The notes under the pieces: generated by a model
Database searches by the model: none
The model's input: the letters and a program-made list of their open reading frames with translations, nothing else
Told to the model about the DNA's origin: nothing
Program-made: the position numbers and the translations under genes
Source: Nitrosomonas sp.
GTDB lineage: Bacteria > Pseudomonadota > Gammaproteobacteria > Burkholderiales > Nitrosomonadaceae
Length of the DNA: 64,000 bases
Direction of reading: 5' to 3'
Assembly: GCA_019635215.1 (NCBI GenBank)
Contig: JAHBZZ010000001.1
Location: forward strand, 361,535 to 425,534
Part shown: one piece after another, positions 773 through 26,247 of the stretch
Numbering within the stretch: position 1 is the first letter of the stretch
Layout of the letters: each line of letters begins with the position of its first letter

Positions 773-3700
773 ATGCCATTAACCGACATCCGGACAGATC
801 ATGCAACACGACATTCAGCGTCTAACAAGCAACTGAATATAAAAGAAGTTATTTTTATTGATCAAGGCATTGAAGATTATCAAATCTTGATCGACGGTGC
901 CCGACCGGGAGTCCCCGTTCACCTCCTGGATTGCCAAAGTGATGGCGTGATACAACTTAGCGAAGTTCTACGGCAGTATTCACGTCTGGAAGCGATTCAT
1001 ATTGTGTCGCATGGCGATATTGGCTGCCTGACACTAGGCAACAGCCTATTATCCACAGCCACACTCAGCCAATATCGACACAATCTGTTTTCCTGGCAAG
1101 CCAGTTTCAAACAAGGCGCTGATATTCTGATCTATGGCTGCAATGTTGGAAAAGGTATAGCCGGTGAATACTTTGTCCGGCAACTGGCTGATATAACCGG
1201 AGCCAACATCGCTGCATCAAGCAGTCTGACAGGAAACAAGGAACACGGAGGAAACTGGACACTGGATGTAACGACCAATGAAATTCTTGCGGATTTTGTA
1301 TTTCGCAAAGAAAGTCTCGTGCGTTTTTCTTCAACTTTGGCGACAAATACTCTGGATTTTTCAACTTATACAATTACTGATTTTGTTACAGCAACCCATT
1401 CAACAACTGATTTTGGGATAATAAGTTTCAAATTAGTAAATAATGAAGATTCAACCGGAACAGCAAATGCATCACTAACTCTGGCCGCAACAGGTGAATT
1501 TGATAATTCTCTTGATGATTTATTCTATACAGGAACCGATGGAGAATATCTTGTTATTTATACCGATGGGCGCGAGGTTGATTTCCAGTCGGTTGGATTC
1601 GCCAGTGCTGCCATGGGGGGTGATGCTTATATCAGTTTAACGGGTTATGCGTATAAAGATGGTGTTTTACTAGGCAACCAAACTATCACTTCATCAGGAC
1701 CTACTTTTCCGGATAACGGAATTGCTGAGACCGCTACATTTACTGATGCTGTTTTTGAAAATGCCGATGAAATCCGCTTGATCGGTAACAATGCCAATGC
1801 GCTTTCAGGATTAGATGAATTTTCCAAGGCATTGATCGATAATTTAATCATTGCCGATCCTGTGACCGGACCCACCATCACCTCGGCAACTTATAATGCC
1901 AATACCCATACGCTGGTCGTCACAGGAACCAGCATACTAGCCACCGGTGGCGCAGACAATGATATCGATGTTTCCAAACTGACGCTGACCGGTGAAGACG
2001 GCACGTACACACTCACTTCTTCCAATGTCGAAATCGATTCGGCAACGCAGTTCACTGTCGTACTGAATGCGGTCGACCAGATCAACGTGGAAGGATTACT
2101 GAACAAAAATGGAACCTCATCCGTCGGCGCAGTCACCTACAATATTGCGGCTGCCGCAAACTGGAATCCCGCGCAAGCGGGTAATGCCGACTTAACAGAT
2201 AACGGTATTACCGTCAGCAATGTACAGACACCGACCATTACATCCGCAACATACGACGCGAATACCGGTGTGCTGACAGTCACCGGAACCCACTTGGTGA
2301 AAGCCAGCGGCGCAACCAACGATATTACCGCCAACAAATTCACGTTTACTGGCGAAGGCGGCAACACTTATACCCTGACCGATACCGCCAATGTCGAGAT
2401 CACTGACGGCACAAGTTTCTCCATCACGTTGAGCGCAACCGATAAAGCCATCATCAACCAATATATCAACAAAAACGGCACCAGTTCGACAAACGGAACA
2501 ACCTATAATCTGGCTGCAGCCGATGACTGGAATACGGTTATTGGCAATACGAATATCTCCGATACTACTGGCATCACCGTTTCAAACGTTGCTGTTCCTG
2601 CGATTACCAGTGCAACATACGACGCGAACAGCGGCGCACTGGTGGTTACGGGTACGAATTTCCTTCAATTGAACGGCGCGGCGAATGATATCGTCGCCAA
2701 CAAATTCACGTTTACCGGCGAAGGCGGCGAATATACCCTGACCGATACCGCCAATGTGGACATCACGTCCGGCACGGCATTCACGATCACATTAAGCGCC
2801 ACAGACAAGGCCGCAATTAATCAAATCGTCAACAAAAACGGCACTGCTTCCACCAGCGGTACCACCTACAATCTCGCCGCAGCTGAAGACTGGGCGGCCG
2901 GTGCAGATGCCGCCGTTGTCGTGGCTGACACGGTTGGCAATGGCATCACCGCTTCGAACGTGGCGGTTCCTGCGATTACCAGCGCAACATACAATTATTC
3001 GACCAACACGCTGATAGTCACCGGTACAGGCTTTCTTAAACAGGCTGGCGCAACCAACGATATCGATGTCTCCAAATTCACGTTTACCGGGGAAGGCAGC
3101 ACCACTTATACACTGACCAGTGCTTCGGATGTGGAAATCGATTCTGACACACAATTTACGATCATCCTGTCAGGTGCGGATCTTCTCAGTGTTGAAGTCT
3201 TACTCAACAAGAACGGCATCAGTGCAGCGGATGGCACAACCTATAATCTGGCGGCTGAAGAAGACTGGGCAGCCGGTGCGGATGCAGCGGTAAATGTAGT
3301 GGATGCAACGAACGGCATCACCGTTTCAAACTATGCCGCGCCCACGATCACATCGGCGATATATGATGCCAGCACCGGTCAATTGGTTATTACCGGTGAT
3401 AATTTTGTCAGCCTGGCCGGAGCATCCAACGATCTGGACGTATCGCTGCTTACCCTGACCGGCGAAGGCGGCAGCTACACCCTGACCGACACCGCCGATG
3501 TCGATATTACTTCAGCAACTTCGGCAACACTGACCTTAAGTGCTGCCGATCAACTCAATGTCCATGGGCTGCTCAATAAAAACGGAACGGTATCGGGTGG
3601 CGCAATCACTTACAATCTGGCAGCCGCCGACAATTGGATGGCCGGTGCACCGGTAGCCGATGATATCAGTGATACAGCAGGCAATGGCATCACGGTCAGC

Positions 3701-6655
3701 AATGCGCAGACACCCACCATCACTTCCGCCACTTATGATGCGGAGACTGGAACACTGGTTGTCACCGGCACGCACTTGTTTAAGAAACCGGGCGCCGGCA
3801 ATGATATTGATATTTCCACACTGACCTTTACCGGTGGCGTCGCAGATGCAACATATACGCTCACCAGTGCTTCCGATGTCGAAATCACCTCAGCCACATC
3901 GTTCTCGGTCATTCTGGCTGGCGCCGACAAAACGAATATCGATGCATTACTGGATCAATCCGGCACCATATCGTCAGGCGGATCAACCTATAATCTGGCC
4001 GCTGCCGATGACTGGCTGGCAGCCGCAGATACGGCGATCGACATCAGTGATGCCGTAAATGCCATCACGGTATCCAGCAATCCGAAAATCACTTCGGCAA
4101 CCTATGACGCGTCGACCGGGATACTCGTTGTTACCGGCACCAACATCCAGGCTAACGGAAGCGGCGACGATATCGACGTATCCCGATTGACTTTTACCGG
4201 TGAAGACGGCGCCACACATACATTAACCGATACCACCGATGTTGAACGCGACAGCCTGTCACAATTTACCGTCACGCTCAGCGCCACCGACAAAGCCGCT
4301 GTCAACCAGATACTCAATAAATCCGGCACGGTATCCACAAGTGGTACAAACTACAATCTGGCCGCAGCCGACGACTGGAACACCAATGTAACAGCAGGTG
4401 ATACTTCGGATACGAGCGGTAACGGCATCACCGTCAGCAATATACCCGCACCCGCCATAACCGCTGCAACGTACAATACCGGCGGCGGCGTACTGACAGT
4501 CACCGGCGCCGGCTTCCTCAAATTTGCGGGCGCAAACAATGATATCGATGCCAGCCTGTTCACATTCACCGGATTAGGTGGAGGAACCTACACACTGACT
4601 GATACTGCCGACGTCGACATCACCTCGGCTACCGTATTCACACTGATCTTGAGCACTACCGACAAAACCGCGGTCAATATACTCCTCAATGCCAGCGGGA
4701 CAGCTGCCAGTGACGCTACAACGTATAATCTCGCCGCGGCAGAAGACTGGGCAACCGGCTCGGATGCGGCAGTGATTGTTGCCGACACGGCAAACAATAG
4801 CATCACTGTGACGACACCAGCCCCTTCGGGTGGTGGCGGGGGCGGAAGCAATGGAGGTGGAAACAACGGTGGAGGCGGCAATGGTGGTAACACCGGTGGA
4901 ACAACAAAAACTGTCGATGGCGTCACCATACGCACAAAGACGGAAACCAACGGATCAATCACACTGACCGTACCGGTTATTGGCGACACACGTATTGATG
5001 ATCCGGATACACCACATGCGACACACGCAGATATTCCCGTCCTGATCGATGATTCAGGTGATTCGGTGCTTATCGTTGGACTGCCGGCCGGTACCGGCCT
5101 TACCGCCAATGGCCCGTCCACACCGATGAATACACAGGATGCCGCCAACAACCTGGCCCAGCGTATTGCACAGGTAACAACCACTGACAGCGATACACTA
5201 CTGGAAATGACAACGCATGGTCAAAATTTCCTTGCCGCACTAACAGCACAAGAAGATGTCTCGATACAAACCCTGACACTGAAGGCGGACAACAATCACG
5301 TACCCGGACTCCCCATTATCATCACCGGCCCAGCTCTTCCTGGCGACAGCAAACTGGTGCTGATCATTGATGCCAGCCAGCTTCCGCCAGGAACAATCAT
5401 ACAGCTCGATAATGTTGCATTTGCAGTCGTTACCGGTGCTGTCAGCGTCATCGGCGGTGCGGGAGATAATTTTGTGGTGCTCAACGAACAAAAACAGACG
5501 GTGATTCTTGGCGCGGGCGATGATATTCTGTTCGGCGGCGCGGGCGATGACACTATCGGCAGCTTGGGTGGCGATGATCAGGTTACAGGTGGTTCGGGCG
5601 ATGATATCGTGTACGGTGGCGCCGGTCACGACATTTTGACCGGCGGTTCCGGAAACGATGCGCTCAATGGCGGACTGGGTTTCGATACAGCAATACAGAC
5701 AGGCGCACTGACAGATTACCAGATCAAAACCAATGGCCATCATCTCACACTTACACATCACAATGGTGACGTGGATACACTGACCGATATCGAGATCGTC
5801 CGTTTCGAAACTGGCCCGAGCCTGGCCGTCGCACACTCTGTCGCGGAAGCTGCCGCGCACCATCTGGTCAAAACCTGGCTTGGACGCGACCTAACCGTTG
5901 CCGAAGGCAGCGCCGTACAGGATTGGACCAGCGCAGGCAGCAGTGACATCGTTCATGCTTTTCTGAATCTCCCCGAAGCTTCTGATTTCAGAAACATGAC
6001 ACCTGAAGAATTACTCAGCGGAATGGATGATAACCCCAATATCATTCAATTAAACACTGTCCGCGAAGTTACTGGTAATGATAACGACAATCAAGGTTAT
6101 CTGCCATTGGGATTGGCATTGCATATCGATGGCCGCGGCGGACACGATGTGCTCAGAATGCGTGGTGGCCGTGAGGATATCCATCTCGAACAGATCGATA
6201 GCAGTATCGAAATCACGCGGCTTAAAGACGGTGCGATGTTCAGGCTCGACAATGCGGAAATGATCGCATTTGACAGCGGTGAAAATATCCTGCTGGCGCA
6301 TAACCAGGTGGAAGGCATTCTCGGCCGTTTATTCCAGACTTTCTTTGATCGCGATGCCACCATCGACGAATGGCAACTGGGACGTGGAGCACTGACCCAT
6401 GGTATCGATCCCGATATAATTCTGGACTGGTTCCAGACGCGTGCAGACTTGAACACGCTGAACGATACCGATTACATTCAGGCACTTTATATGCAGACTT
6501 TCGGAAGAACGGCGACCGAAACCGAGCTGCATACGCAGCAATCCCGGCTGGAAAATGACAAAATCACACGCGAATGGCTCGCGGTGGATATTGCCGGCAG
6601 CGATGAAGCCATTACTACCATAGGCAGTGTTCTGTTGCTCGACGGTGGTTTATGA
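773..6655 (+). CDS. Giant DUF4347 / RTX repeat protein, probable type I-secreted adhesin
   Basis: A 1960-residue acidic surface or secreted protein. Residues about 25-180 form a DUF4347 domain (segments HIVSHGDIG and LIYGCNVGKG). A region of unknown fold follows, then eight tandem repeats of about 122 residues (about 366-1346), each starting near P-x-I-T-S-A-T-Y and ending YNLAAADDW...GITVSN. A glycine/asparagine linker (about 1352-1378), an unassigned domain, and RTX nonapeptides of GGxGxDxx type (about 1580-1640) come next; the C-terminal 100 residues resemble DUF4214 (LYMQTFGRTATETEL). No Sec signal peptide is visible, which with RTX repeats suggests type I secretion. GGGAG lies 8 bases before the ATG. 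No ABC/MFP secretion genes are adjacent. An adhesin role is inferred from architecture. Confidence 0.85.
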   Translation: MPLTDIRTDHATRHSASNKQLNIKEVIFIDQGIEDYQILIDGARPGVPVHLLDCQSDGVIQLSEVLRQYSRLEAIHIVSHGDIGCLTLGNSLLSTATLSQYRHNLFSWQASFKQGADILIYGCNVGKGIAGEYFVRQLADITGANIAASSSLTGNKEHGGNWTLDVTTNEILADFVFRKESLVRFSSTLATNTLDFSTYTITDFVTATHSTTDFGIISFKLVNNEDSTGTANASLTLAATGEFDNSLDDLFYTGTDGEYLVIYTDGREVDFQSVGFASAAMGGDAYISLTGYAYKDGVLLGNQTITSSGPTFPDNGIAETATFTDAVFENADEIRLIGNNANALSGLDEFSKALIDNLIIADPVTGPTITSATYNANTHTLVVTGTSILATGGADNDIDVSKLTLTGEDGTYTLTSSNVEIDSATQFTVVLNAVDQINVEGLLNKNGTSSVGAVTYNIAAAANWNPAQAGNADLTDNGITVSNVQTPTITSATYDANTGVLTVTGTHLVKASGATNDITANKFTFTGEGGNTYTLTDTANVEITDGTSFSITLSATDKAIINQYINKNGTSSTNGTTYNLAAADDWNTVIGNTNISDTTGITVSNVAVPAITSATYDANSGALVVTGTNFLQLNGAANDIVANKFTFTGEGGEYTLTDTANVDITSGTAFTITLSATDKAAINQIVNKNGTASTSGTTYNLAAAEDWAAGADAAVVVADTVGNGITASNVAVPAITSATYNYSTNTLIVTGTGFLKQAGATNDIDVSKFTFTGEGSTTYTLTSASDVEIDSDTQFTIILSGADLLSVEVLLNKNGISAADGTTYNLAAEEDWAAGADAAVNVVDATNGITVSNYAAPTITSAIYDASTGQLVITGDNFVSLAGASNDLDVSLLTLTGEGGSYTLTDTADVDITSATSATLTLSAADQLNVHGLLNKNGTVSGGAITYNLAAADNWMAGAPVADDISDTAGNGITVSNAQTPTITSATYDAETGTLVVTGTHLFKKPGAGNDIDISTLTFTGGVADATYTLTSASDVEITSATSFSVILAGADKTNIDALLDQSGTISSGGSTYNLAAADDWLAAADTAIDISDAVNAITVSSNPKITSATYDASTGILVVTGTNIQANGSGDDIDVSRLTFTGEDGATHTLTDTTDVERDSLSQFTVTLSATDKAAVNQILNKSGTVSTSGTNYNLAAADDWNTNVTAGDTSDTSGNGITVSNIPAPAITAATYNTGGGVLTVTGAGFLKFAGANNDIDASLFTFTGLGGGTYTLTDTADVDITSATVFTLILSTTDKTAVNILLNASGTAASDATTYNLAAAEDWATGSDAAVIVADTANNSITVTTPAPSGGGGGGSNGGGNNGGGGNGGNTGGTTKTVDGVTIRTKTETNGSITLTVPVIGDTRIDDPDTPHATHADIPVLIDDSGDSVLIVGLPAGTGLTANGPSTPMNTQDAANNLAQRIAQVTTTDSDTLLEMTTHGQNFLAALTAQEDVSIQTLTLKADNNHVPGLPIIITGPALPGDSKLVLIIDASQLPPGTIIQLDNVAFAVVTGAVSVIGGAGDNFVVLNEQKQTVILGAGDDILFGGAGDDTIGSLGGDDQVTGGSGDDIVYGGAGHDILTGGSGNDALNGGLGFDTAIQTGALTDYQIKTNGHHLTLTHHNGDVDTLTDIEIVRFETGPSLAVAHSVAEAAAHHLVKTWLGRDLTVAEGSAVQDWTSAGSSDIVHAFLNLPEASDFRNMTPEELLSGMDDNPNIIQLNTVREVTGNDNDNQGYLPLGLALHIDGRGGHDVLRMRGGREDIHLEQIDSSIEITRLKDGAMFRLDNAEMIAFDSGENILLAHNQVEGILGRLFQTFFDRDATIDEWQLGRGALTHGIDPDIILDWFQTRADLNTLNDTDYIQALYMQTFGRTATETELHTQQSRLENDKITREWLAVDIAGSDEAITTIGSVLLLDGGL
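1870..4812 (+). repeat. Eight in-frame tandem repeats of about 367 bp in the giant protein
   Basis: Repeat starts lie near 1870, 2230, 2600, 2970, 3340, 3713, 4083 and 4450. Each unit encodes a start like TPTITSATYDANTG, a GEGG-type turn, TLTDTADVDITS, a conserved LSATDK segment, then NKNGT and YNLAAADDW. Units differ at many silent and replacement sites, so they are old duplications rather than recent copies. Unit 7 begins NPKIT and unit 8 has GGG in place of the usual turn. The array stops at a glycine-rich linker. Confidence 0.85.
5510..5690 (+). other. RTX calcium-binding nonapeptide block
   Basis: The DNA encodes consecutive GGxGxDxx units (LGAGDDILF, GGAGDDTIG, GGSGDDIVY, GGAGHDILT, GGSGNDALN). 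In the RTX family such repeats form a calcium-loaded parallel beta roll and mark type I-secreted proteins. The block lies about 320 residues before the C-terminus. Confidence 0.9.
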
Positions 6656-22623: not shown

Positions 22624-24129
22624 ATGCCGCTCGCCGTTCTGTACAGCCGCGCACTGAATGGCATGCATGCACCACTGGTTACAGTTGAGACGCATATCGC
22701 CAATGGCCTGCCAAGTTTTACTATCGTCGGTCTTCCGGAAACGGAAGTCAAGGAAAGTCGTGATCGCGTCAGGGCCGCGCTGCAAACCGCGCACTTCAAA
22801 ATACCTGCACAACGCATCACCGTCAATCTGGCGCCCGCTGACCTGCCTAAGGAAAGCGGGCGTTTTGATCTGCCAATCGCGCTTGGTATTCTGGCAGCTT
22901 CCGGTCAAATTCCCGCCAATGCGTTGAACCAATATGAATGGGCCGGCGAGCTCGCCCTGACAGGTGAATTACGGCCGATACACGGCGCACTGGCCATGAC
23001 GTACAGCGCCGCACAGTCGGGCCGCAGTTTTGTCTTACCGCAGCACAATGCCGCCGAAGCTGCGCTGGTTAAACAGGCGCAAATCTATGCCGCACAGTCT
23101 TTATTGCAAATTTGCGCTCATCTGACCGGCGACCAGCCGTTGCCGGTGTATCACAATCCGCCTGAAAAACAAAACATCATTCCGGATTACCCGGATATGG
23201 AAGAAGTCAAGGGACAAACGCAAGCCAAGCGCGCACTGGAAATCGCCGCCACAGGCGGCCACAGCCTATTAATGGTCGGTCCACCCGGCACCGGGAAATC
23301 CATGTTAGCGGCACGTTTTCCCGGTCTCTTGCCACCGATGACTGAATCGGAAGCCCTGGAATCAGCCGCCATACAATCTCTCAGCCACGGCGGTTTCGAT
23401 ATCAACAACTGGAAACGCAGACCTTACCGCGCACCGCATCACACCGCATCAGGCGCTGCACTAGTCGGTGGCGGCAGCCATCCGCGCCCCGGTGAAATCT
23501 CGCTGGCCATGCATGGCGTGTTGTTTTTGGATGAGCTCGCCGAATTTGACCGCAAGGTGTTGGAAGTGTTACGCGAACCACTCGAATCCGGGAAAATCAC
23601 CATCTCACGCGCAGCACGCCAAGCTGAATTCCCCGCCCGCTTCCAACTCATCGCAGCGATGAATCCTTGCCCCTGCGGCTATCTGGGTCACCCTTCCGGC
23701 AAATGTCATTGCACTCCCGACAAAATCTCCCGCTACCGTACACGAATTTCCGGTCCATTGCTCGATCGCATTGATCTGCAAATCGAAGTTCCAACCGTGC
23801 TGCAGGAAGAATTGATGCGCCAGCAAATAAATGGCGAGAAAAGCGGCACGATCCGCCAACGCGTTGAAAAATCACATCGATTGCAGCTTGAACGGCAAGG
23901 CAAAACTAACAACTGTCTGAGCGTTAAGGAAATCGATCAATTCTGTGCACTTGATAATCTCAGCGAAAATCTATTAAAGCAAGCAATTAGTCGCTTGAAT
24001 TTATCAGCAAGATCGTATCATCGTATTCTGAAGGTGGCACGAACCATTGCAGATTTAGCAGGCACCGAGAAAATCAATAATCAACATATTGCTGAAGCGA
24101 TTCAGTATCGCAGATTGGATAAACATTAA
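22624..24129 (+). CDS. comM: YifB/ComM-family Mg-chelatase-like AAA+ ATPase
   Basis: A 501-residue hexameric AAA+ helicase of the ComM group; in Vibrio and relatives ComM drives branch migration during natural transformation, and it is widespread in bacteria that are not known to be competent. The N-terminal Lon-like fold has NLAPADLPKESGRFDLPIA; Walker A is GPPGTGKSM, Walker B LFLDELAEF, and NPCPCGYLGHPSGKC is a cysteine-bearing insert typical of the family. Sensor and arginine-finger region is near RISGPLLDRIDL. It follows ubiK by 117 bases. No competence genes are in view. Confidence 0.92.
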   Translation: MPLAVLYSRALNGMHAPLVTVETHIANGLPSFTIVGLPETEVKESRDRVRAALQTAHFKIPAQRITVNLAPADLPKESGRFDLPIALGILAASGQIPANALNQYEWAGELALTGELRPIHGALAMTYSAAQSGRSFVLPQHNAAEAALVKQAQIYAAQSLLQICAHLTGDQPLPVYHNPPEKQNIIPDYPDMEEVKGQTQAKRALEIAATGGHSLLMVGPPGTGKSMLAARFPGLLPPMTESEALESAAIQSLSHGGFDINNWKRRPYRAPHHTASGAALVGGGSHPRPGEISLAMHGVLFLDELAEFDRKVLEVLREPLESGKITISRAARQAEFPARFQLIAAMNPCPCGYLGHPSGKCHCTPDKISRYRTRISGPLLDRIDLQIEVPTVLQEELMRQQINGEKSGTIRQRVEKSHRLQLERQGKTNNCLSVKEIDQFCALDNLSENLLKQAISRLNLSARSYHRILKVARTIADLAGTEKINNQHIAEAIQYRRLDKH

Positions 24130-24268: not shown

Positions 24269-25306
<1,038 letters not shown>

Positions 25307-25341
25307 TTAAAAAAATATCTTTTGAAGGAACTTATATATAT

Positions 25342-25369
25342 TTGGTACTGTCTTTTGTTTGGGCATAAG
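25342..25369 (+). promoter_or_regulatory. Possible promoter of the hemB-divergent sRNA
   Basis: TTGGTA (25342-25347) and CATAAG (25364-25369) are spaced by 16 bases and would start transcription near 25376, just before the first hairpin. An alternative -35 is TTGAAG at 25322. Both are weak matches. Confidence 0.35.
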
Positions 25370-25375
25370 AACAAG

Positions 25376-25469
25376 TGTCCCCTACCTTTTCCTCCCTGAA
25401 GGTGGGGCCTTAAGTGATATTAAGGCGGTTCCCCCCCGGTTTTTACTCCCCTTTAACCGGGGGTTTTTT
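25376..25469 (+). ncRNA. Candidate three-hairpin small RNA with C/U-rich loops
   Basis: Hairpin 1: CCCC (25379-25382), a bulged T, ACCTT (25384-25388), loop TTCCTCCCTG, AAGGT (25399-25403), GGGG (25404-25407). Hairpin 2: CCTTAA (25408-25413), loop GTGATA, TTAAGG (25420-25425). Hairpin 3: CCCCCGGTT (25433-25441), loop TTTACTCCCCTTT, AACCGGGGG (25455-25463), then six T. The loops of hairpins 1 and 3 carry CCTCCC and CTCCCC, complementary to Shine-Dalgarno sequences. Such loops are known in neisserial sibling sRNAs and alphaproteobacterial CcsR/cuckoo RNAs. No ORF overlaps it. The 5' end is a guess; expression is untested. Confidence 0.55.
25433..25469 (+). terminator. Strong factor-independent terminator
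   Basis: A perfect 9-bp G/C-rich stem (25433-25441 with 25455-25463), a 13-base loop and T6 (25464-25469) on the plus strand. Both flanking protein genes are on the minus strand, so this terminator needs a plus-strand transcript of its own. Confidence 0.85.
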
Positions 25470-25644
25470 ATTGTAACTCAGTCAATATAATCCTATAACC
25501 TATTCTAGAACTGAGCTGATCGCATCTGGCTCGAATTCTTTTGTGTGCCTCGTTCTTGCTATCATTTCCTGTTCAATTCATTCTTTCCCTTAACGATGTA
25601 CCAGATCTATTGAATCACATCAATAAGCCATGATTCTGCCAGAT

Positions 25645-26247
25645 CTACAGATAACCGTTCTCGGTCCAATCTTGAAGGACTTTATTCGCTTCTTCAATAC
25701 CGATGGATTTATTGCTCGAAAATAATTGAACGCTCACCATTGGATAATCAATTTTCAGGAAATCCCTGACTTGATCCAATGTAATCATTGCCTGTTGTCT
25801 GCTCAGCTTATCGGATTTCGTCAATAGAATGTGAACAGCTTTATGTGTAAAAGAAAACCACTCAAGCATCTGTAGATCAAGATCCTTAAGAGGGTGCCGA
25901 ATATCCACTATTAAAACAAGGCCAATGAGCTCTTCACGTGTCAACAGATATTGGGTGAGAAATGCTTCCCAGTGTTTGCGAATTGCAATTGGAACTTTTG
26001 CATAACCATAACCTGGTAAATCGACTAGAAAATGACCGGAATTCAAACGAAAATAATTGATCTGCTGTGTTCGTCCTGGAGTTTTACTCGTAAAAGCGAG
26101 TTTAGTTCGCCGCGCAAGCGCATTAATTGCACTTGATTTTCCGGCATTAGAACGTCCTGCAAAAGCGATTTCTTTTCCATTGTGAACTGGAAGATCTTTT
26201 AAACTGTTTGCAGATGTATAAAAAGTCGCACCTTCAAATAGAATCAT
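25645..26247 (-). CDS. engB: Ribosome biogenesis GTPase EngB (YihA/YsxC)
   Basis: A 200-residue essential GTPase needed for 50S subunit assembly and, in several species, division. G motifs are G1 [10 protein letters not shown]3 DLPGYG and G4 TKSDK; the segment [13 protein letters not shown] is the switch I region. It ends the leftward run coaX-engB with 6 bases to coaX, so the genes are cotranscribed. Length equals the family norm (about 200-210). Strongly AT-rich in codon third positions, like its neighbours. Confidence 0.94.

What the first reader, a model, noticed from the sequence alone, without database searches (positions are those of the whole stretch)
25342..25469. Candidate anti-Shine-Dalgarno small RNA divergent from hemB
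Between two minus-strand genes lies a plus-strand element with three consecutive perfect or near-perfect hairpins, the last a strong terminator with T6 that no annotated gene would use. Loops 1 and 3 are C/U-rich (CCTCCC, CTCCCC), able to pair with ribosome binding sites. Neisserial sibling sRNAs and alphaproteobacterial CcsR/cuckoo RNAs use the same design to repress many mRNAs. Structure is seen directly; regulatory role is inference.
Basis: partly seen in the sequence, partly recalled or inferred. Interest (0 to 1): 0.72.

Follow-up and report, generated by a model that had tools for sequence, protein, structure and literature searches.

The report
Stress-controlled anti-ribosome-site small RNA
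A small RNA gene of a known family sits between hemB and engB in this nitrifying bacterium; its envelope-stress-type promoter and fixed C-rich loops suggest that it blocks translation of other genes, and many distantly related bacteria have a similar RNA gene beside engB.

Summary
The structure is real and belongs to a known Rfam family: RF02837 anti-hemB, 60.2 bits, cut-off 49.5. The predicted RNA (25361-25469) folds into four consecutive hairpins, not three. In its bacterial family, 74 of 100 genomes have an above-cut-off match; of 90 loci fetched, 87 show both hemB and engB. Stems change with compensation while the loops CCTCCCT (81 of 82) and TCCCCTTT (76 of 82) stay fixed. New, as far as my searches show: (1) a sigma-E (RpoE/AlgU)-type promoter, GGAACTT-N16-GTCTTT, lies upstream, and the genome has RpoE and RseA. 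(2) Across the GTDB class, 81 of 130 best RF02837 hits lie tail-to-tail with engB, and 57 of 80 of those have polA upstream: the locus of Spot 42, ErsA and sX13. (3) A few class members score weakly on the sX13 or ErsA models. Best reading: an envelope-stress sRNA whose C/U-rich loops mask Shine-Dalgarno sites, probably orthologous to the polA-engB sRNAs. Expression, sigma-E control and targets in this organism are not shown.

The parts
25327..25333 (+). -35 element GGAACTT of a sigma-E/AlgU-type promoter (consensus recalled)
   Evidence: 7 of 7 to GGAACTT; GAACT present upstream of 92 of 94 Nitrosomonadaceae R1 matches, window not among them
25350..25355 (+). -10 element GTCTTT, 16-nt spacer from the -35
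   Evidence: 4 of 5 scored positions; relatives often have [GCA]TCTTA. The window fails the strict TCNNA pattern, as do L065, L069-L071, L073 and L075
25361..25469 (+). predicted mature sRNA, 109 nt
   Evidence: Fold -46.1 kcal/mol, z -3.57. Start inferred from the -10 and from the 105-nt length of ncS04 (PMC5688073, passage)
25380..25471 (+). Rfam RF02837 anti-hemB match, 60.2 bits
25361..25380 (+). 5' hairpin, outside the 81-position Rfam match
   Evidence: helix 1 of A2: 5 of 5 pairs with double changes
25381..25406 (+). hairpin 1; loop TCCTCCCT at 25390-25397, anti-Shine-Dalgarno-like
   Evidence: core CCTCCCT in 81 of 82 sequences, stems in many compensated forms
25407..25426 (+). hairpin 2, 7 bp, loop GTGATA
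   Evidence: helix 4 of A2, 95.2% of cells paired
25433..25469 (+). intrinsic terminator with C/U loop TTTACTCCCCTTT (25442-25454) and T6
   Evidence: TCCCCTTT in 76 of 82 sequences
24269..25285 (-). hemB, divergent neighbour on the 5' side
   Evidence: NF006762, 502.7 bits
25645..26247 (-). engB/yihA/ysxC, convergent neighbour on the 3' side
   Evidence: TIGR03598, 234.5 bits

Best explanation
25327-25469 is a free-standing trans-acting sRNA gene of Rfam family RF02837. RNA polymerase with sigma-E (RpoE), released from RseA on envelope stress, would start at about 25361 and stop at the terminator at 25464-25469. The 109-nt, four-hairpin RNA carries two C/U-rich apical loops (UCCUCCCU and UUUACUCCCCUUU) that imitate the anti-Shine-Dalgarno tail of 16S rRNA. 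It would pair with G-rich ribosome-binding sites, probably with Hfq, and block translation of a set of mRNAs. By descent it is probably the betaproteobacterial form of an engB-convergent sRNA gene that elsewhere sits between polA and engB (sX13, ErsA, and by position Spot 42); here hemB replaces polA. Shown by computation: family membership, structure, conservation, promoter consensus, synteny. Inferred: transcription, sigma-E dependence in this organism, Hfq, target repression, common descent.
For: Rfam hit above cut-off, the only above-cut-off RF02837 hit in the own genome. Same family: 94 of 100 genomes match at E<=0.01, 74 above the cut-off (at E<=0.01 5 of 14 unrelated control genomes also ring, 0 above the cut-off). 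Both hemB and engB in 87 of 90 fetched loci. Covariation in the family: 90.0% of cells paired, score 0.316 against 0.158 shuffled and at most 0.069 slid; class-wide and named: 0.634 against 0.198. Strict sigma-E pattern upstream in 84 of 94 family matches (shuffled mean 1.17, max 5) and 23 of 57 class/named matches (mean 0.31, max 3). RpoE and RseA adjacent in the genome. engB convergent in 81 of 130, polA upstream in 57 of 80. The same RNA in L125 scores 47.7 bits on RF02837 and 39.5 on RF02232 sX13 (E 5.5e-4); L115 scores 34.8 bits on RF01719 ErsA (E 0.0046) (all below cut-off). ErsA loci: 8 of 9 have the same promoter type and polA upstream. Literature passages: sX13 repression needs its C-rich loops and G-rich target motifs (PMC3771888); ErsA is AlgU-dependent and represses algC (PMC8395346).
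Against: No transcript data for this organism. ncS04, the Burkholderia homologue, showed no significant change in any of the seven conditions of Table 2 (PMC5688073, passage); Burkholderia-type promoters look sigma-70-like by eye, which may explain this but was not tested. The window's own -10 (GTCTTT) fails the strict pattern. In the own genome GAACTT-N15-17-GTCTNW occurs 4 times and its reversed control 15 times, so the motif alone means little without conservation. Only 30 of 121 named hairpin-1 matches have the strict pattern. R1 finds neither ErsA (1 of 30 Pseudomonadaceae loci, E 0.52) nor Spot 42. The weak side hits also fall on other C-rich families (ar14, suhB, RF02278), so they may reflect shared design. 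Pairing of CCUCC loops with Shine-Dalgarno sites is close to automatic. sX13 is reported Hfq-independent. 49 of 130 class hits were not found convergent with engB within 3 kb.
Confidence: 0.72

Rival explanations
1. It is an expressed anti-Shine-Dalgarno sRNA, but under a housekeeping promoter, and similar to sX13/ErsA only by convergence at a favoured genomic site.
For: ncS04 did not respond to the tested conditions (PMC5688073, passage). C-rich-loop sRNAs exist in other families: LhrC gives a below-threshold hit here, 34.6 bits against a cut-off of 110, and ar14, suhB and RF02278 give weak hits in class loci. R1 does not find ErsA or Spot 42.
Against: The GAACTT..TCTTA promoter is conserved in the family far above shuffles, and no sigma-70-like site was found at 25200-25700 (shuffles give 1.2 on average). 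Convergence with engB in 81 of 130 class hits and polA upstream in 57 of 80 is hard to get by chance.
Confidence: 0.16
2. It is a cis-acting antisense or divergent-promoter element that controls hemB or engB only, as the name anti-hemB might suggest.
For: Fixed linkage to hemB and engB in the family (87 of 90 loci); back-to-back arrangement with hemB.
Against: The sRNA (25361-25469) overlaps neither coding region. In 57 of 80 engB-convergent class loci the upstream neighbour is polA. The fixed parts are the C/U loop cores, and the 95 nt upstream of the hemB start hold no GGAG-like site for them.
Confidence: 0.07
3. It is only a terminator or structured 3' region of readthrough transcription, without regulatory function.
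For: It ends in a strong intrinsic terminator. A plus-strand gene (YifB type, 22624-24129) does end about 1.2 kb upstream, on the far side of hemB.
Against: No plus-strand ORF of 60 aa or more lies between that gene and the element. Loop cores are more fixed than stems, and the promoter is conserved.
Confidence: 0.05

Closest known systems
Rfam RF02837 anti-hemB (Burkholderia RNA 7; ncS04 of B. cenocepacia)
   Same: Sequence, structure and hemB/engB neighbourhood; CU-rich stretches; ~105 nt
   Different: The Rfam model covers 81 positions, and its match here leaves out the 5' hairpin. Burkholderia copies have sigma-70-like promoters by eye, the window a sigma-E-like one
sX13 of Xanthomonas (RF02232)
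   Same: Stems with C-rich loops acting on G-rich motifs near start codons; intergenic position next to polA (PMC3771888, passages); one class member scores on both models, below the sX13 cut-off
   Different: Downstream of polA rather than beside hemB; loop 2 here is not C-rich; no RF02232 hit in the window; reported Hfq-independent
ErsA / Pseudomon-1 of Pseudomonas (RF01719)
   Same: Convergent with engB; GAACTTT-type promoter; by eye a 5' hairpin and a terminator loop with TCCCC; AlgU-controlled (PMC8395346, passages)
   Different: polA upstream instead of hemB; by eye no CCUCCCUGAG hairpin 1; not found by R1
Spot 42 (spf) of E. coli
   Same: polA - sRNA - engB(yihA) convergent layout
   Different: No R1 match; CRP-controlled and without such loops (recalled)
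Betaproteobacteria toxic small RNA RF02278 (bdhR1; B. pertussis S17 is described as similar)
   Same: CU-rich design against ribosome-binding sites in Betaproteobacteria (PMC5688073, PMC11722255, passages)
   Different: Two hairpins, other loci; the window scores only 19.5 bits against a cut-off of 50

Membership tests
RF02837 anti-hemB | covariance-model score above the curated cut-off | tested here: met
   60.2 against 49.5 bits
RF02837 anti-hemB | encoded beside hemB on the opposite strand | tested here: met
   hemB and engB both found in 87 of 90 family loci
RF02837 anti-hemB | expressed as a ~105-nt RNA | not testable with these tools
   reported for ncS04 in PMC5688073 (passages); no data for this organism
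ErsA (RF01719) | Rfam model match | tested here: not met
   no hit in the window
ErsA (RF01719) | convergent with engB | tested here: met
ErsA (RF01719) | polA immediately upstream | tested here: not met
   hemB is the neighbour
ErsA (RF01719) | sigma-E/AlgU-type promoter sequence | tested here: met
   7 of 7 at -35 and 4 of 5 at -10; fails the stricter pattern
ErsA (RF01719) | AlgU/RpoE dependence in vivo | not testable with these tools
   -
sX13 (RF02232) | Rfam model match | tested here: not met
   no hit in the window; class relative L125 reaches 39.5 bits, cut-off 50
sX13 (RF02232) | three stems with apical C-rich loops | tested here: inconclusive
   hairpin 1 and terminator loops are C-rich, hairpin 2 loop GUGAUA is not
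Spot 42 | sequence/structure similarity | tested here: not met
   R1 does not match the spf locus L126; no Spot 42 hit in the window
LhrC (RF00616) | score above cut-off | tested here: not met
   34.6 against 110 bits
Betaproteobacteria toxic sRNA (RF02278) | score above cut-off | tested here: not met
   19.5 against 50 bits
Neisserial sibling RNAs; CcsR/cuckoo RNAs | homology to those RNAs | not tested
   no dedicated comparison made; RF02837 is the only above-cut-off Rfam hit in the window

The most novel reading that the evidence does not exclude
anti-hemB (RF02837), sX13 (RF02232) and ErsA (RF01719), and by position Spot 42, are branches of one ancestral envelope-stress sRNA gene fixed tail-to-tail with engB before Beta- and Gammaproteobacteria split. 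It used C-rich loops against Shine-Dalgarno sites and sigma-E for control. Lineages later replaced polA by hemB, the sigma-E promoter by sigma-70 (Burkholderiaceae, Comamonadaceae) or the loops themselves (ErsA, Spot 42).
Probability: 0.47. Interest if true: 0.7.

Novelty: new member of a known kind. Interest (0 to 1): 0.5.

Why it matters
[quoted passage not shown] The class-wide synteny here speaks to the first half and adds the betaproteobacterial hemB-engB locus. It gives the anti-hemB family, for which the passages I read name no function, a concrete hypothesis: envelope-stress control and blocking of ribosome sites. It makes ammonia oxidisers a testable system for it, with flhD and nirK as first, weak candidate targets.

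Tried and rejected
Sigma-70 promoter scan: none found in 25200-25700, shuffles give 1.2 on average; this led to the sigma-E search. LhrC, RF02278 and NsiR1 Rfam hits: all far below cut-off. A promoter pattern search in the own genome gave 4 sites, the sRNA among them, and 15 for the reversed control: not informative. Global MAFFT alignment of 82 sequences misaligned stems of different length and gave a poor consensus, so I used a hairpin-wise rule and a covariance model. The hairpin-wise rule found no hairpin-1 stem in 18 of 82 sequences and a few spurious ones. R1 alignments lean towards the model structure by construction, and R1 was run mostly on loci already picked by RF02837 or by the hairpin-1 pattern, so its hits there are not independent. 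R1 on 30 engB loci from RF02837-negative genomes: E<0.01 in 5 of 30. R1 on 30 Pseudomonadaceae engB loci: one match at E 0.52. Rfam on 20 of the RF02837-negative engB loci: no above-cut-off hit. The stretch printed as 'flhD region' was mis-cut and is not used. A reading frame runs open through the RNA; not pursued.

Rows dropped. Family loci: 90 of the 93 other positive genomes were fetched (G016, G026, G062 not); 6 of 91 spacers failed the extraction rule, 2 were duplicates and 1 truncated sequence (L054) was removed, leaving 82; 10 of 140 positive genomes had places beyond the print limit; 80 of the 81 convergent genomes. One search delivered 120 loci, of which 80 were printed; searches used the 80, all 120; 26 of these 120 named loci, 28 class loci (L108 left out as a second copy of a family genome) and E. 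coli; window and the two rows of L183 (same genome as L110) left out; 45 of the RF02837-negative class genomes, engB found in 40, 30 loci delivered; 59 genomes, 30 loci; one search scanned 20 of these 30.

Full report
What is there. Between hemB (24269-25285, minus) and engB/yihA (25645-26247, minus; both named by NCBIfam) lies a plus-strand element. Rfam calls it RF02837 anti-hemB at 60.2 bits, cut-off 49.5, the only above-cut-off Rfam hit in the window and the only above-cut-off RF02837 hit in the own genome. The predicted 109-nt RNA 25361-25469 folds into four back-to-back hairpins at -46.1 kcal/mol (z = -3.57; 1 of 200 shuffles as stable). The 5' one (25361-25380) lies outside the 81-position Rfam match, which starts at 25380.

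Conservation. RF02837 matches at E<=0.01 occur in 94 of 100 genomes of the same family, 74 above cut-off; at E<=0.01 5 of 14 unrelated control genomes also ring, none above cut-off. The family is taken to be Nitrosomonadaceae, because 1 kb of locus L009 (genome G022) is identical to Nitrosospira briensis Nsp8; that the window genus is Nitrosomonas is inference. Of 90 fetched loci, 87 show both hemB and engB and 3 show only one. In 82 distinct sequences (from 91; 6 failed extraction, 2 duplicates, 1 truncated) CCTCCCT is present in 81 and TCCCCTTT in 76, while the hairpin-1 stem takes many compensated forms, for example CCCGCTT/GAGCGGG, CCCTGTCTT/GAGACAGGG, CTCCGCCTT/AAGGCGGAG and, in the window, CCCTACCTTT/GAAGGTGGGG; the stem rule failed in 18 of 82. 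A 110-position, four-hairpin model (R1, from 13 sequences) finds the element in all 91 sources given (95 matches); these loci had been picked by RF02837. On that alignment (92 distinct rows) 19 of 25 pairs have double changes, with 235 double-changed cells against 62.5 shuffled and a covariation score of 0.316 against 0.158. The 5' helix has double changes in 5 of 5 pairs. Such alignments lean towards the model; the slid controls reach at most 0.069.

Promoter. No sigma-70-like site was found in 25200-25700 (shuffles: 1.2 on average). Instead GGAACTT (25327-25333), 16 nt and GTCTTT (25350-25355) precede the RNA, the form of sigma-E/AlgU promoters (consensus recalled). A strict pattern GAACT-N15-20-TCNNA is found upstream of 84 of 94 family matches; 100 rounds of dinucleotide shuffling gave a mean of 1.17 and a maximum of 5; GAACT alone is in 92 of 94. 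The window itself fails the strict pattern, as do L065, L069-L071, L073 and L075, through the last base of the -10. The two matches without GAACT are second tandem copies (L009, L013). In the own genome a similar pattern occurs 4 times and its reversed control 15 times, so the case rests on conservation, not on the motif. The genome has RpoE (TIGR02939, 328 bits) with RseA next to it.

Wider distribution. In the GTDB class, 142 of 370 genomes have a match at E<=1e-4, 23 above cut-off; 1 of 14 control genomes rings. For 130 of the 140 other positive genomes the place was printed. In 81 of 130 engB lies within 3 kb tail-to-tail (64 of the 81 within 151 bp, median 48); 5 are adjacent in another orientation, 21 have engB on another contig, 15 gave no engB match at 1e-15, and 8 are on the same contig but far. 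At 30-35 bits 14 of 30 are convergent. In 57 of 80 of these polA lies upstream on the same strand within 3.5 kb; in 19 it is on another contig and in 4 elsewhere. This is the layout of E. coli polA-spf-yihA. R1 finds 54 of 55 chosen class and named loci, missing only E. coli Spot 42. Covariation there is 0.634 against 0.198 shuffled over 57 distinct rows. Strict sigma-E promoters precede 23 of 57 class/named matches (shuffled mean 0.31, max 3). Burkholderia, Paraburkholderia and Comamonadaceae loci instead show sigma-70-like sequences by eye (no statistical test).

Link to known RNAs. The same RNA in L125 hits RF02837 (47.7 bits) and RF02232 sX13 (39.5 bits, E 5.5e-4). L115 also hits RF01719 ErsA (34.8 bits, E 0.0046), and L113 and L101 hit it weakly (E 0.055 and 0.067) (20 of the class loci). 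All these side hits are below their cut-offs, and similar weak hits fall on ar14, suhB and RF02278. In Pseudomonadaceae (so taken because G244 has an above-cut-off RsmY), RF01719 is found at 9 of 20 engB loci scanned; 8 of the 9 have polA upstream and a GAACT..TCNNA promoter, the ninth (L332) neither by my rules. R1 does not recognise them (1 of 30 loci, E 0.52), and by eye ErsA lacks hairpin 1. In 30 engB loci of RF02837-negative genomes R1 reaches E<0.01 in 5. So the link to sX13 and ErsA is position, promoter, design and weak bridging scores, not direct membership.

Function. sX13 repression needs its C-rich loops and G-rich motifs, which in sX13-repressed mRNAs lie mostly near start codons (PMC3771888, abstract and passages). 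ErsA is AlgU-controlled and represses algC with Hfq (PMC8395346, passages). ncS04 of B. cenocepacia, the anti-hemB homologue, is reported from dRNA-seq with RACE, with Northern blots, as Hfq-bound, and as unchanged in the conditions of Table 2 (PMC5688073, passages). On 362 predicted genes of 424 kb, loop 1 and the terminator loop pair with the 25 nt before starts at mean -6.17 and -5.21 kcal/mol, against -4.31 and -3.34 in coding windows; the hairpin-2 loop shows no gain (-2.96 against -3.20). Energies of -9 or lower: 18.0% for loop 1, 2.2% for its shuffles; the shuffle value is an average over 10 shuffles, whose mean energy is -5.58, so this comparison is rough. Start choice used Shine-Dalgarno strength, which favours this result. 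Candidates: FlhD, whose ribosome site holds AGGGGAGTA, a perfect 9-nt complement of the terminator loop that occurs twice on the two strands of 360 kb (chance alone would give a few); and copper nitrite reductase with GGAGGGAG before its ATG. These are leads only.

Literature on novelty. Searches for anti-hemB, RF02837 and related names, ncS04, sX13 with ErsA, ErsA/engB/Spot 42/sigma E/yihA and pairs among Pseudomon-1, sX13, ErsA, ncS04, anti-hemB, Spot 42 listed no paper that I saw joining anti-hemB with sigma-E or with the polA-engB sRNAs; the library holds open-licence papers only, and I read passages, not whole texts. That ErsA is a functional orthologue of Spot 42 (PMC8395346) and that sX13 shares the polA locus with Spot 42 and the alpha-r7 RNAs (PMC3771888) is already in print. 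PMC3521395 (passage) lists Anti-hemB among homologues of known sRNAs in Burkholderia. PMC11722255 (passages) describes S17, a different betaproteobacterial sRNA against ribosome sites.

Verdict. Real, a new member of a known family, with a new and testable hypothesis of envelope-stress control and a deep shared locus.

Noticed in passing
L037 1015-1119, 1285-1390, 1548-1653 (+): Three tandem copies of the sRNA, each preceded by a GAACTA-type promoter, in one genome of the window's genus; two copies also in L009 and L013, where the second copy has no GAACT upstream.
   Followed up: partly
L155, L161, L185 and similar; L151, L156, L182: Burkholderiaceae and Comamonadaceae copies show sigma-70-like promoters by eye (TTGAGA..TATCAT or TTGAAA..TTAAATT) in place of GAACTT, a possible promoter swap.
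   Followed up: partly
L103 1501-1566 and 1700-1770; L109 1299-1366 and 1501-1570: Tandem short versions (66-71 nt matches) that by eye lack hairpin 2.
   Followed up: no
L181 6169-6258 (Vogesella aquatica): Here the RNA lies downstream of engB on the same strand instead of converging with it.
   Followed up: no
L262 16896-17294 (-), L258 11449-12561 (+): flhD and nirK of the same genome have ribosome sites with good matches to the terminator loop and loop 1.
   Followed up: partly
L116 2037-2121 (-): A c-di-GMP-I riboswitch lies about 450 bases from the sRNA in this class member.
   Followed up: no
window 773-6655 (+): A 1960-aa ORF with a G-rich ribosome site (AAAGGGAGTATAGCA); its protein was not examined.
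   Followed up: no
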